44,712 bases of DNA from an uncultured Croceitalea sp. GTDB lineage: Bacteria; Bacteroidota; Bacteroidia; Flavobacteriales; Flavobacteriaceae. Shown piece by piece: positions 1 to 44,712 of the stretch. Location: the NCBI GenBank assembly GCA_947503285.1, contig CANNDD010000014.1, positions 1-44,712 of the forward strand, written 5' to 3'. The notes under the pieces were generated by a model. That model was not told where the DNA came from, searched no databases, and worked only from the letters and a program-made list of their open reading frames with translations. The translations under genes were made by a program, and so were the position numbers. Positions within the stretch are counted from its first letter, which is position 1. Each line of letters opens with the position of its first letter.

Positions 1-100
1 CCACTAACCACTAACCACTAACCACTAACCACTAACCACTAACCACTAACCACTAACCACTAACCACTAACCACTAACCACTAACCACTAACCACTAACC
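1..100. repeat. Heptanucleotide tandem repeat (CCACTAA)n
   Basis: About 14 perfect head-to-tail copies of the 7-nt unit CCACTAA run from the first base of the window to position 100. No base differs between copies, so the array is either young or kept uniform by slippage. It ends one base before the TGTCA repeats of the dnaK upstream region. The true left end lies outside the window. Because 7 is not a multiple of 3 and stops occur in the unit, it is non-coding. Confidence 0.97.
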
Positions 101-140
101 TGTCACCTTGTCAGATTTTTAGTCATGGCATGATCATTGT
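101..140 (+). promoter_or_regulatory. Candidate heat-shock/sigma-54-like promoter region of dnaK
   Basis: Seen: a direct repeat TGTCA-cct-TGTCA (101-113) followed by TGGCATGATCATTGT (126-140). The latter fits the -24/-12 sigma-54 layout: TGG at -24 and TTG at -12 with the right 12-nt register. However, the usual GC of the -12 box is GT here. A start near 152 would leave a leader of about 40 nt before the dnaK ATG at 192. That the paired TGTCA motifs bind an activator or repressor is inference. Confidence 0.4.
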
Positions 141-6018: not shown

Positions 6019-6082
6019 TAATTGTAGGTATTTTCGTCCAACGACACTCATTTTTAAAGAATCCGTAATAGACCAAACAAAA

Positions 6083-6106
6083 GGGACTGCCCATTTAGGC
6101 AGTCCC
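6083..6106 (-). terminator. Intrinsic terminator of the PD40/PorP operon
   Basis: Perfect 9-bp stem GGGACTGCC / GGCAGTCCC with a 6-nt loop. On the minus strand it is followed by TTTTGTTT. It lies about 90 bp past the stop of the PorP/SprF-like gene. Confidence 0.88.
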
Positions 6107-6197
6107 TTGTCAAAAGCATTCGGCACATTATGAAACTAATGACCCTAAAAATCAACCCCGATTTCCGTTAGCTTTTGGTAATATTTTAAGCATGCAT

Positions 6198-25186: not shown

Positions 25187-25951
25187 TTATAATTCTTTCA
25201 AACGGACGTCAATTAACTCCAGTATGAGTTCTATTTCCTCTTCTAATGGCTTGTAATACTGTATATTGGTTAGGTTCGAGCTAGCTTGATAGACTATAAT
25301 TTTGTTTAAAAACGGTAAGTAATTGCTCAGTGCTTTATTTGTGGTTTTAAAATTGGTGTCGATATAGTTTTCCCTCACACCAATATCTACATAACCCTTT
25401 TCCATATTTCCGTTTTGTAATATGTCTTTAATAGCCATCGCTCTGTAATCATAAACTTCTAGTTCTTGTTGTTCAATGGCATCCACCTTGCTATTAAAAC
25501 CAGCTAATTTGTGCTTTAGTTCACTGTTTAAAATGAGTTTAAGTTGCCCTGAACTCAATATTTCGGTAAGAACACCATTTTCAGGTGAAAAATTTATTTC
25601 GGTTCCTAGTGTTTTGCTAGAAAATTGCGCCATTGTTTTCCCAGTAAGAGTGTCCAGTACTTTAGCATTATAGCTTTGCACCAATTTTTCTGCCCAAACA
25701 ATATTTTCATCATTTATCCGAATAACTTCTTGTAGTGCAGCTTTGTTTTGTGAATACTCCTGCATAAGGGCTAAAAGATTGTCTTTCTCTACTTTTCGGT
25801 CTTGTTGGTCAAGATTCCAGTTGTTAATTTGTAATGCGATAAGAATCCCGATAACTACTAGTATGATTTCGCCAATGGCGTACTTGAAGTATCTTCCGGT
25901 TTTATTTTCACTCATAAGCTTGTAGCGTATTTTTCTAAAAAATTTTATCAT
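25187..25951 (-). CDS. DUF6090 family membrane-anchored protein 4
   Basis: 254 aa. N terminus MIKFFRKIRYKLMSENKTGR, helix YAIGEIILVVIGILIALQ, INNWN. Second motif SSGQLKLILNSELKHKLAGF. The first 30 codons are very close at DNA level to paralogue 5 (30192-30998), differing by the 33-bp insertion in the latter. This makes it the natural reference for that insertion. Ends 47 bp before paralogue 3, probably in the same transcript. Confidence 0.9.
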   Translation of the reverse strand: MIKFFRKIRYKLMSENKTGRYFKYAIGEIILVVIGILIALQINNWNLDQQDRKVEKDNLLALMQEYSQNKAALQEVIRINDENIVWAEKLVQSYNAKVLDTLTGKTMAQFSSKTLGTEINFSPENGVLTEILSSGQLKLILNSELKHKLAGFNSKVDAIEQQELEVYDYRAMAIKDILQNGNMEKGYVDIGVRENYIDTNFKTTNKALSNYLPFLNKIIVYQASSNLTNIQYYKPLEEEIELILELIDVRLKEL

Positions 25952-26551: not shown

Positions 26552-26647
26552 TTTTTTTTCTCAATATTTTGTACATCCTCTATCAATCTTTGAGAACCCA
26601 AAGCTGTTTTAGCTTTGCCATACATAAATGAGTCATTTTCTTTGTCC
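26552..26647 (-). pseudogene. 96-bp duplicated 3' fragment of the FAD oxidoreductase gene
   Basis: This segment matches 27446-27541, the 3' part of the oxidoreductase gene, at 92 of 96 positions. It keeps the reading frame (ENDSFMYGKAKTALGSQRLI) and then runs into a stop. Only the tail of the gene is present; just upstream is the stop end of the DUF2306-like gene. It is either a remnant of a second oxidoreductase gene or the scar of a local duplication. Confidence 0.9.
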
Positions 26648-27399: not shown

Positions 27400-28806
27400 T
27401 TATTGCTCTATTTGGTTTTTAGCTTTCCCATTATTCTTTGCATTATTTTTTTTCTCAATATTTTGTACATCCTCTATCAATCTTTGGGAACCCAAAGCTC
27501 TTTTAGCTTTACCATACATAAATGAGTTATTTTCTTTGTCCAATAAAAGGTCAGCTGCTATTAATCCATAAGCTAAAGACCCTTTAGCTCCAATACCCGA
27601 CATTCCTCCTACGAGCACGAAACTAGAATCAATCTCAGTTCCATTTTTTAAGACGTGAGTTACGTAGGGTATTTCAGATTCGGTTAAAGAATAGACGCAA
27701 GAATAGCCTTGGTCAAATTCCAAATCAGAGAAAGTTATGGGTATATCGAGTTTAGCCAGATAATCTACCGTATTCTCTTTGCTCCACTGAATTTCTTGCT
27801 CGGTTAATTGCATTGCCCACACGGTATCTAAATCCTTAATTTCTGTTCTTAAAAAATGTCCTCCAACTTTTAATAAAGGCCTTTGGTCACTATCGAACTT
27901 CTCAATCATTGAATAAAATATTTCAGAATTTAAATACGCCACAGGATAAGAGGAAATAAGTCTATTTTTCTGTTCAATAGACAACATATCATAGCGGTCA
28001 GGTTTTATTTTTAAAAATGAAAGAAATAAACGCTTTGGGCTAATCAAGTCTTTAAAATAGGGTGCTATATCTTTTACTAAAGTCCCATTATAGGGGCCAG
28101 CGGCAGCCACTACCTTCTTGCTCAATACTATTTTAGTTTTTCCAGTTTTAGTATCTGTAATTTCAATTTTATATATCCCGTCCTCTTTTATGAGACTGGT
28201 TACTTTTTGGTTGTAGCGTACGCTATTTCCAGATTTTCTTATGGCTTGATGCAGTTTGGTGATTAACACTTTCGGGTTGAGCGTGCCCGTGTACTCATTA
28301 TATTCACGAATAACAAGCGTGGTATCTGAAATCTTCATTCCAAATTTCTCATCTGCTTCTTCTCTAGTTGATGCATATTCATAGGTGTCTAATTGCCCAT
28401 CTAACAATGCTTCAACTTCATTTAATTGCGATGTCGAGTAGATGTAAGTTACAGGGGAAGTTCTATAAATATCTTCCATAGAATGAAGCCGGTTGGTTTC
28501 TCCTTCATTCAAGTAAGCTATCAAACCTTCGGTCTCTTCTACAGAGGTTTGCTGTAGAAATGAGAAAAGATCTTCTTTTGGACCTAAACTTCTTGAAATT
28601 CTTGCTTCTCCAAAACTAGAGCCATAAGTGTAAACGGAATCTTGCTGCTCAAGCAATAACACATTCTGTCCATATTTAGAAAGCTCCCAAGCCGTCGAAC
28701 TTCCCATAAGTCCACCACCAATGACCACAATATCCTCAATCTTTTCAGATGTTTGACAGGATATTACATTCAATACAATGACTGATATTAAGAGTAGGTT
28801 TCTCAT
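27400..28806 (-). CDS. Lipoprotein FAD-dependent oxidoreductase, monomeric sarcosine oxidase type
   Basis: 468 aa. Lipoprotein signal MRNLLLISVIVLNVISC (Cys17), then the dinucleotide-binding motif VVIGGGLMGSSTAWEL. GEARISRSLG corresponds to the HGDTRIIRH region of monomeric sarcosine oxidase. Cys370 in GYSCVYSLT aligns with the Cys that covalently holds FAD in that enzyme. The C terminus has GGMSGIGAKGS. The family oxidises N-methyl or secondary amines to imines with release of H2O2. An extracytoplasmic, lipid-anchored form is unusual. The tail ends in a Lys/Asn-rich stretch. It overlaps the amidohydrolase gene by 4 bp. Confidence 0.85.
   Translation of the reverse strand: MRNLLLISVIVLNVISCQTSEKIEDIVVIGGGLMGSSTAWELSKYGQNVLLLEQQDSVYTYGSSFGEARISRSLGPKEDLFSFLQQTSVEETEGLIAYLNEGETNRLHSMEDIYRTSPVTYIYSTSQLNEVEALLDGQLDTYEYASTREEADEKFGMKISDTTLVIREYNEYTGTLNPKVLITKLHQAIRKSGNSVRYNQKVTSLIKEDGIYKIEITDTKTGKTKIVLSKKVVAAAGPYNGTLVKDIAPYFKDLISPKRLFLSFLKIKPDRYDMLSIEQKNRLISSYPVAYLNSEIFYSMIEKFDSDQRPLLKVGGHFLRTEIKDLDTVWAMQLTEQEIQWSKENTVDYLAKLDIPITFSDLEFDQGYSCVYSLTESEIPYVTHVLKNGTEIDSSFVLVGGMSGIGAKGSLAYGLIAADLLLDKENNSFMYGKAKRALGSQRLIEDVQNIEKKNNAKNNGKAKNQIEQ
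27446..27541 (-). repeat. Intact copy of the 96-bp direct repeat
   Basis: This is the in-gene copy, inside the 3' end of the FAD oxidoreductase gene, of the segment repeated at 26552-26647 (four mismatches). The two copies lie in direct orientation about 0.9 kb apart and enclose the DUF2306-like gene. Confidence 0.92.
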
Positions 28807-30191: not shown

Positions 30192-30998
30192 TTAAACATT
30201 AGTAAAATTTAAATAGTCTTCGATTACCTTTTTTATAAGTTGGGCCTTTTCAATGGCTTCTTTGTACAGTAGTTGTTGATTCTTTAATTGGTAATATCTC
30301 GCAAATATTAGCGTCGACATTTTATTGTCATTTTTTATTTTTTCTATATCAAGTTCAATAGGTTTTCTTCTGTCATCCTTGTAATAATCACTAATAATAG
30401 GATGCTTATTACTGCCTTTTCTGTGATACATGCTGTAACTATCAAAATAATAGGGCTCTAAGTCTTTCTTTATAAATGTATTGGAAATTTCTTCGCGTTC
30501 CTTAACTCGGTTTAATAGGTTGTAATAAAGGGTAATTTCACTTTGTAAAGTTTTTGGTAAAATTGAGAATTCACCACTTTGATTTAGCTTATCGAAAGCT
30601 GTTGTATTAGTGTAAAAATTTCGTTCAAATAAATTATCTATAATGTGACTTGTGGTTAAAGAATCAAACGGTTTTATGAGTTGAAATTGTTCTGATAGTC
30701 TTTGACACGATACTAAATTGGTTAAGGTATTATCATTGAGTGTGCGCAACAAAATGAGGTCGTCCGCAACGTATTGGTACAATTGGCTTAGTTGTATCTC
30801 AGCCGACCTTTTTGATTTAGATTGTGCATTCCAATTATTAATCTGTAATGCTAAAAGAATACCAATCATAACTAAGATGATTTCGCCTATGGCATATTTG
30901 AAGTAGCGGCCGGTTTTATTTCCTGCCCGTACCGAACGGTTACGTTCGGGCGGGTCACTCATAAGCTTATATCGTATGTTTCGGATGAGTTTTATCAT
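30192..30998 (-). CDS. DUF6090 family membrane-anchored protein 5, with an in-frame palindromic insertion
   Basis: 268 aa. N terminus MIKLIRNIRYKLMS is interrupted by the extra residues DPPERNRSVRAG before NKTGRYFKYAIGEIILVM. Paralogue 4 reads MSENKTGRYFKYAIGEI at this place. The extra DNA is exactly 33 bp, so the frame is kept and the gene looks intact. Second motif QSGEFSILPKTLQSEITLYY. The insertion lengthens the cytoplasmic segment just before the membrane helix. It stands apart from the main array, between the amidohydrolase and paralogue 6. Confidence 0.9.
   Translation of the reverse strand: MIKLIRNIRYKLMSDPPERNRSVRAGNKTGRYFKYAIGEIILVMIGILLALQINNWNAQSKSKRSAEIQLSQLYQYVADDLILLRTLNDNTLTNLVSCQRLSEQFQLIKPFDSLTTSHIIDNLFERNFYTNTTAFDKLNQSGEFSILPKTLQSEITLYYNLLNRVKEREEISNTFIKKDLEPYYFDSYSMYHRKGSNKHPIISDYYKDDRRKPIELDIEKIKNDNKMSTLIFARYYQLKNQQLLYKEAIEKAQLIKKVIEDYLNFTNV
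30922..30954. mobile_element. 33-bp GC-rich palindromic element inserted in a gene
   Basis: On the minus strand it begins CCCGCCCGAACG, passes TAA, and ends CCGTTCGGTACGGGCAGG. The two sides pair (CGAACG/CGTTCG and CCCG/CGGG) with a short asymmetric bulge, forming a hairpin. About 70% GC in a roughly 35% GC gene. Removing it restores exactly the sequence of paralogue 4 (AGTGA joined to AAATAAAACC). It resembles REP/RPE-type short palindromic elements. Confidence 0.85.
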
Positions 30999-41706: not shown

Positions 41707-41736
41707 AAGCCTCCCAATTGAGGGAGGCTTTTAATT
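41707..41736 (+). terminator. Intrinsic terminator between modules A and B
   Basis: AAGCCTCCC and GGGAGGCTT pair perfectly around AATTGA, followed by TTAATTTT. It divides the two copies into separate transcripts, or makes module B dependent on its own promoter. Confidence 0.88.
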
Positions 41737-44520: not shown

Positions 44521-44575
44521 AGGAGTTAGGAGTTAGGAGTTAGGAGTTAGGAGTTAGGAGTTAGGAGTTAGGAGT
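44521..44575. repeat. Heptanucleotide tandem repeat (AGGAGTT)n
   Basis: Seven full copies plus a partial of the unit AGGAGTT, starting two bases after the permease stop codon. The reverse complement TAACTCC is close in style to the CCACTAA unit at the window start. A 60-bp spacer separates it from the next array. Confidence 0.96.
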
Positions 44576-44635
44576 CAATGGAGCCTAAATAGTTAACAGT
44601 ATAGGGTTATAGTTGGTATCCAAATTATATTTTTG

Positions 44636-44712
44636 CATAAACCATAAACCATAAACCATAAACCATAAACCATAAACCATAAACCATAAACCATAAACCA
44701 TAAACCATAAAC
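44636..44712. repeat. Heptanucleotide tandem repeat (CATAAAC)n
   Basis: Eleven perfect copies of CATAAAC run to the last base of the window. The array's true right end lies outside. Confidence 0.96.

What the first reader, a model, noticed from the sequence alone, without database searches (positions are those of the whole stretch)
30922..30954. Exact 33-bp GC-rich palindrome inserted in frame in a DUF6090 gene
The paralogue at 25187-25951 shows the empty site: removing the 33 bp joins AGTGA to AAATAAAACC exactly. The element adds 11 codons net (DPPERNRSVRAG in place of E), keeps the frame and folds as a hairpin. Short palindromic elements inside genes are known from Rickettsia (RPE); a flavobacterial case would be of interest.
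Basis: partly seen in the sequence, partly recalled or inferred. Interest (0 to 1): 0.7.

Follow-up and report, generated by a model that had tools for sequence, protein, structure and literature searches.

The report
Mobile palindrome inserted in protein gene
A 33-letter hairpin-forming piece of DNA, one of a family scattered through Bacteroidia and often found in broken copies of tRNA genes, has landed inside a membrane-protein gene without breaking its reading frame and adds eleven amino acids.

Summary
The 33-bp insert at 30922-30954 is real, the only copy found in its genome, and in frame in a DUF6090 gene. It is an imperfect hairpin, not an exact palindrome. It belongs to a dispersed family (E; consensus CCCGCCCGAACGTACCGTTCGGTACGGGCGGG) found in 20 of 199 genomes of its family and 16 of 395 of its class. 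The closest relative of the gene, in Croceitalea dokdonensis, is empty; that species has its only copy at the same codon of another DUF6090 gene, whose counterpart in the window is empty. Elsewhere E adds exactly 33 bp in frame to paaA (20 of 20 readable orthologues lack it) and lies in frame in an aminotransferase gene. The other copies read are by my reading non-coding: tandem 6-9-mer arrays, or helix ends of tRNA-gene copies, some followed by a small GIY-YIG nuclease gene and an intact tRNA. A second palindrome family (F2) behaves alike. What moves it is unknown; the GIY-YIG nuclease is a candidate (about 0.3).

The parts
30922..30954 (-). 33-bp palindromic element of family E, in frame (DPPERNRSVRAG with its flanking bases)
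30192..30998 (-). DUF6090 gene that carries the element (268 aa, element at codons 15-26)
25187..25951 (-). empty DUF6090 paralogue; its closest relative in C. dokdonensis is filled at the same codon
31006..31023 (.). second GC-rich hairpin (TTCCCGA-GAAA-TCGGGAA) just upstream of the focal gene; not shown to belong to family E

Best explanation
The insert is one copy of a dispersed, non-autonomous short palindromic element of Bacteroidia (family E, mostly 32-33 bp). Shown: copies that differ little occur in genomes of 11 families; it sits as a block between sequences that are contiguous in intact relatives, without target-site duplication; it occurs in tandem 6-9-mer arrays, at helix ends of tRNA-gene copies, and in frame in four protein genes (two DUF6090, paaA, an aminotransferase). 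Inferred: it landed in a DUF6090 gene in Croceitalea and was kept because 33 bp keeps the frame and the site, a segment before the membrane helix, tolerates extra residues; recombination between the 5' ends of neighbouring paralogues, or loss, then gave the swapped filled/empty pattern. Inferred, not shown: an enzyme acting in trans moves it, possibly on a folded single strand. It probably does nothing useful for the protein.
For: Pattern in 16 of 199 family genomes, reversed control in 0 of 199. Covariance model in 20 of 199 family genomes and 16 of 395 class genomes, 13 of these in 10 other families. Focal gene vs C. dokdonensis gene: 73% over 232 aa, empty; window 25187 gene (empty) vs C. 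dokdonensis filled gene, 63% over 235 aa. paaA of G020: +33 bp in frame, absent from 20 of 20 orthologues with a readable start, one of them a congener 98% identical. Aminotransferase of G418: E in frame at codons 341-351 where three solved relatives shown have about 18-20 fewer residues. DUF6090: 258 of 298 genes have exactly 20 residues before the core motif; 18 distinct genes have real extra residues, 15 of them GC-rich hairpins by my reading. Flanks of E or F2 match a tRNA across the junction in 33 of 128 sites, up to 64 nt at 100%; control 16 of 2250. Repeats of 4 nt on both sides of E in only 2 of 113 copies.
Against: No movement has been observed. Own genome and C. dokdonensis have one copy each, so recent activity there is not shown. 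Both copies sit at the same codon of two paralogues with different flanks and differ in their cores; independent random insertion explains that poorly. No strain-level alleles were available. The alignment shows no compensatory base changes. The aminotransferase insert is longer than E alone and has no close empty relative here.
Confidence: 0.85

Rival explanations
1. E is spread by, or with, a GIY-YIG nuclease mobile unit that targets tRNA genes: [tRNA 5' piece broken by a palindrome][GIY-YIG ORF][intact tRNA]. The palindrome spoils the left-over target so that it is not cut again or recombined away; solo copies like this one are escapees.
For: 7 of 90 E copies, in 5 genera, have a GIY-YIG domain starting 20-33 bp after E. 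11 of 48 small GIY-YIG stretches have an intact same-strand tRNA 8-19 bp behind; in the 10 with a visible upstream I read a GC-rich palindrome in the tRNA 5' piece each time, of several unrelated sequences. F2 takes the same place in the genus (L166, L170). The own genome has a tRNA-Phe version (L317).
Against: 7 of those 10 units were fetched because they carry E or F2; only L290, L307 and L284 are independent of that choice, and their genomes were not drawn at random. 83 of 90 E copies have no GIY-YIG stretch within 400 bp, and none lies near the two DUF6090 copies or the paaA copy. Of 23 class copies, 2 loci have one. Palindromes may simply collect in dead tRNA pieces.
Confidence: 0.3
2. 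E is an ordinary REP moved by a RAYT (Y1 tyrosine transposase).
For: Short palindrome, no target duplication, multi-copy in some genomes; 6 of 9 genomes searched and the own genome hold a Y1_Tnp gene.
Against: G167 (25 copies), G025 and G001 have no Y1_Tnp match. None of 13 Y1_Tnp loci, with about 1.5 kb on each side, holds an E-like match. GTAG within 6 nt of E in 9 of 113 copies, several of them inside tRNA D-loops.
Confidence: 0.08
3. Both Croceitalea copies go back to one old insertion at this codon that was passed between DUF6090 paralogues by gene conversion, rather than to two insertions. This is a rival for the history only, not for what the element is.
For: One copy per genome, same codon, 33 bp each. 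The 5' ends of the focal gene and the 25187 paralogue agree in 115 of 150 nt, the rest in 45 of 179 residues.
Against: Immediate flanks and cores of the two copies differ. F2-like inserts at other codons of DUF6090 genes with close empty relatives show that this segment is hit repeatedly.
Confidence: 0.5
4. Local hairpin duplication or assembly artefact, unrelated to any dispersed family.
For: No second copy found in the own genome.
Against: G069 (another genus) holds a 33-bp copy that differs at one base.
Confidence: 0.02

Closest known systems
Rickettsia palindromic elements (RPE)
   Same: Hairpin-forming repeats found between genes and in frame inside unrelated protein genes (passages of PMC10969869 and PMC3733652).
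   Different: E is 32-33 bp (RPEs about 150 bp in PMC10969869); no CGTC near either end in 113 copies; other phylum; common sites here are tRNA copies and tandem arrays.
GTAG/CGTC-tagged REP elements, including intragenic REPs
   Same: 20-40 bp palindromes, multi-copy in some genomes, some inside genes; PMC3733652 reports CGTC repeats in Bacteroidetes too (passages).
   Different: Neither tag is a regular end feature of E; no RAYT link.
MITEs
   Same: Small, non-autonomous, can make in-frame fusions (PMC10969869, passages).
   Different: E is shorter than the 70-300 bp given in PMC3733652, has no target duplication and no known parent transposon.
GIY-YIG homing endonuclease genes
   Same: A small GIY-YIG gene beside an interrupted and a restored copy of its presumed target.
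   Different: Known homing genes come without such palindrome modules, as far as I recall; cutting was not tested here.

Membership tests
RPE | in-frame copies in unrelated protein genes | tested here: met
   two DUF6090 genes, paaA, an aminotransferase
RPE | also present outside genes | tested here: met
   most of the 90 family copies read
RPE | CGTC end tag reported for R. conorii RPE sequences (PMC3733652) | tested here: not met
   CGTC within 6 nt of either end in 0 of 113 copies
RPE | length of about 150 bp as given in PMC10969869 | tested here: not met
   32-33 bp; 52-61 bp variants in G081 and G167
RPE | sequence similarity to RPE consensus sequences | not tested
   no RPE consensus was compared
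REP/RAYT (REPtron) | GTAG at one end | tested here: not met
   9 of 113 within 6 nt
REP/RAYT (REPtron) | REP copies beside a RAYT gene | tested here: not met
   0 of 13 Y1_Tnp loci; no Y1_Tnp in 3 of 9 E-bearing genomes searched
MITE | target-site duplication | tested here: not met
   identical 4-mers on both sides in 2 of 113 copies
GIY-YIG homing unit | nuclease gene next to an interrupted and a restored target | tested here: inconclusive
   7 of 90 E copies and 2 genus F2 copies; selection bias as told
GIY-YIG homing unit | site-specific cutting of the empty target | not testable with these tools
   needs biochemistry

The most novel reading that the evidence does not exclude
Bacteroidia host a new type of composite mobile element: a mini GIY-YIG nuclease gene that invades tRNA genes at cloverleaf helix ends, restores the tRNA, and leaves the broken tRNA piece interrupted by a short palindrome. 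The palindromes are exchangeable modules that also spread alone, into tandem arrays and in frame into protein genes such as DUF6090, paaA and an aminotransferase.
Probability: 0.3. Interest if true: 0.85.

Novelty: new variant of a known kind. Interest (0 to 1): 0.66.

Why it matters
In-frame palindromic insertion is best known from obligate intracellular Rickettsia. Here it is seen in Bacteroidia with filled and empty versions of the same gene, including a 98%-identical congener pair at a conserved enzyme (paaA). The same palindromes recur at helix ends of tRNA copies, partly beside small GIY-YIG nuclease genes. That gives a concrete, testable lead on how such short palindromes move, which is, as far as I recall, an open question for RPEs.

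Tried and rejected
Looser copies in the own genome: two patterns at 2 and 3 mismatches gave fewer matches than the reversed control (13 vs 19, 11 vs 15). The idea that the C. dokdonensis orthologue shares the insert: rejected. RAYT as mover: disfavoured. ARAGORN on flanks with the element left out: a tRNA called across the junction in 0 of 90 copies; this result stands against intact tRNA genes at these sites. BLAST against 104 ARAGORN tRNAs then showed partial tRNA matches. Covariation: 0 double changes in 12 pairs. AlphaFold on the focal protein alone: mean pLDDT 43.6, usable only as a hint of helix-loop-helix at the N-terminus. A strict regular expression for GIY-YIG found one ORF and was replaced by an HMM. 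tblastn of the aminotransferase in plasmids gave relatives below 60% identity only, so no close empty allele. Rfam search of five tRNA-site loci found three intact tRNAs only.

Literature: ten searches (open-access papers only) listed no paper that by title or abstract start reports palindromes in tRNA copies or in-frame palindromes in Bacteroidota. Of four papers I saw passages: PMC3733652, PMC10969869, PMC1564403, PMC12306157; the others only as listings. PMC3733652 names Bacteroidetes among phyla with CGTC repeats and lists intragenic REPs in a supplement I did not see; PMC12306157 lists repeat counts for Flavobacterium genomes. Prior notice of such elements is thus not excluded.

Rows dropped before counts: L032 repeats the gene of L025; L097 is a start misassignment; 2 of 92 listed E copies were not fetched; the two paaA pieces of G048 were not read. 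ORFs over E copies that are short, made of repeats or start downstream of E I judged not to be genes.

Full report
OBSERVATION. The 33 bp at 30922-30954 lie in frame in an 807-bp ORF on the minus strand that encodes a DUF6090 protein (PF19578). Leaving them out gives the junction seen in the paralogue 25187-25951. The best fold is a 7-bp stem with a 4-nt loop, bulges, a 4-bp outer stem and 4 unpaired bases: a good but not an exact palindrome. None of 100 shuffled windows gives a match within 3 mismatches. The window is a whole contig of G000. G001 of the same genus has a contig of the same length (772,424) as Croceitalea dokdonensis NZ_LDJX01000002.1, with the same matching gene.

FAMILY. The pattern CCCGCCCGAACN{6,20}CGGGCRGG is found in 16 of 199 genomes of the family, its reversed control in none. 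A covariance model of 20 copies finds E in 20 of 199 family genomes at E <= 0.01 and in 16 of 395 class genomes at E <= 0.001, 13 of them in 10 other families. Both searches used strict filters, so these are lower bounds. The arms and GAAC are invariant in the 20 aligned copies, partly because the pattern fixed them; the pairs show no compensatory change. The own genome and G001 have one copy each; G167 has 25, G081 15, G020 14, G150 11. G069 has a 33-bp copy that differs from the focal one at one base.

CODING COPIES. (1) The focal gene: its closest relative, in C. dokdonensis, is empty (73% over 232 aa). (2) A DUF6090 gene of C. dokdonensis has E at the same codon (NPPEHTGSARAG); its closest relative outside that species is the window gene 25187-25951, empty, and the window gene hits it back (63% over 235 aa). 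Filled and empty are thus swapped between two gene pairs. The focal gene and the 25187 paralogue share 115 of the first 150 nt without the element but 45 of 179 aligned residues beyond, so their 5' ends have recombined or been conserved. (3) paaA of G020 (TIGR02156) reads MSEEQI-TRPNVPLGTGVE-NLEAQ. In 20 of 20 orthologues with a readable start the 12 residues are one (K, R or similar), and the congener G205 is 98% identical after the insert; the gain over G205 is 33 bp. (4) In G418, another family of the class, an LL-diaminopimelate-aminotransferase-like gene carries E in frame at codons 341-351, directly after a second palindrome (CCCCTCTCCTCGAGGAGAGGGG); three solved relatives shown have about 18-20 fewer residues there. 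This fourth case rests on more distant relatives. Other ORFs over E copies are short, run through repeat arrays, or start in tRNA pieces or downstream of E; I do not count them.

DUF6090 AS A HOT SPOT. Of 298 distinct DUF6090-like genes, 258 have exactly 20 residues before the core motif. Eighteen distinct genes have real extra residues (+7 in 14, +11 in two, +9 and +14 in one each). In 15 of these I read a GC-rich hairpin: E twice, otherwise mostly an F2-like 21-bp form CCTGCCT-n-GCCGGCAGGCAGG (KPALPAG and the like), most of them five codons further on; three are not clearly palindromic. Mean folding energy of 54 nt from the site is -12.3 kcal/mol over 20 filled rows (one gene twice, one misassigned) and -5.8 over 258 empty genes. 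Five other filled genes have close empty relatives, 78 to 94% identical beyond the site.

NON-CODING COPIES. Flanks of 90 of 92 listed family copies were read. Tandem 6-9-mers lie within 60 bp in 38 of 90 copies against 33 of 1518 control windows; all 38 are in G167, G081 and G020. With the element left out, flanks match a tRNA across the junction in 12 of 90 family copies, 11 of 23 class copies (two weak, E about 0.01) and 10 of 15 F2 copies of the genus (two weak, E about 0.04); control 16 of 2250 random junctions in the same family loci. The 33 junctions fall after tRNA nt 9 (6), 12-13 (6), 17 (1), 21-23 (16), 50 (2) and 58 (2), mostly ends of cloverleaf helices as I number them, in both orientations. 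ARAGORN calls none of the 90 family sites a tRNA even without the element, so these are mostly partial copies; intact tRNAs of the same kind are often nearby. G181 has three E-bearing copies of tRNA-Leu(tag) and an intact one 12 kb away. About 40 of the 90 copies fall in none of these classes; in G150 several share flanks and may belong to a longer repeat.

GIY-YIG UNITS. In 7 of 90 copies (5 genera) a GIY-YIG domain (PF01541) starts 20-33 bp after E. Eleven of 48 small GIY-YIG stretches have an intact same-strand tRNA 8-19 bp downstream. Ten have a visible upstream, and in all ten I read a palindrome in the tRNA 5' piece, of several unrelated sequences; seven were fetched through E or F2. A 3' version exists: tRNA-Phe followed by GIY-YIG copies, with CCCCGA(A/G)GCTTCGGGG in the repeated T-arm remnant, in G001 (L296) and the own genome (L317). 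About 30 of the 48 stretches have no tRNA within 300 bp.

MECHANISM. Shown: block insertion without target duplication, the sites, the host range. Inferred: neutral retention in a tolerant protein segment, shuffling between paralogues, mobilisation in trans. RAYT is disfavoured. The preference for helix ends suggests a folded single strand as target; this is inference. The GIY-YIG nuclease is the best candidate I can name, at about 0.3.

NOVELTY. In-frame palindromes are known from Rickettsia and as intragenic REPs (PMC10969869, PMC3733652, passages). In ten searches of an open-access library I saw no listing on palindromes at tRNA helix ends or on in-frame ones in Bacteroidota; a supplement of PMC3733652 that lists intragenic REPs was not seen. 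I file it as a new variant of a known kind.

Noticed in passing
L164/L165/L172 (tRNA-Asn), L168/L174 (tRNA-Ile), L175/L177 (tRNA-Thr), L166 and L170 (tRNA-Arg): In the genus the F2 palindrome sits in broken tRNA copies beside an intact tRNA, the tRNA-Asn, -Thr and -Arg cases in more than one species; in L166 and L170 a GIY-YIG gene lies in between.
   Followed up: partly
L317 (G000:C10:1-2700): Own genome: tRNA-Phe followed by three GIY-YIG stretches; repeats of the tRNA 3' end carry CCCCGAGGCTTCGGGG in the T-arm.
   Followed up: partly
L290, L284, L311: Left-over tRNA-Met and tRNA-Leu pieces with two palindromes each, at two places of the D-arm.
   Followed up: no
window 1-119, 44521-44575, 44628-44704: 7-bp tandem repeats (CCACTAA, AGGAGTT, CCATAAA) at both contig ends; arrays of similar period surround E copies in other genera.
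   Followed up: partly
window 26552-26647 and 27446-27541: 96-bp repeat, 96% identical.
   Followed up: no
window 6081-6108 and 41707-41730: Two more GC-rich hairpins with 11- and 9-bp perfect arms.
   Followed up: no
L211-L216, L222, L226 (G081): Longer E variant (53-55 bp) with the same arms around another core, in 7-mer arrays.
   Followed up: no
L381 481-1791 (G418): The aminotransferase ORF ends in CHPEPVEGAVQKKEMLRQAQHDK, which looks like the translation of another dispersed repeat (recalled, not tested).
   Followed up: no
L206/L267 (G181:C12:281600-282200): Three tandem tRNA-Leu(tag) copies with E in the D-arm and TTCCGATAGCTATCGGAA in the T-arm.
   Followed up: partly
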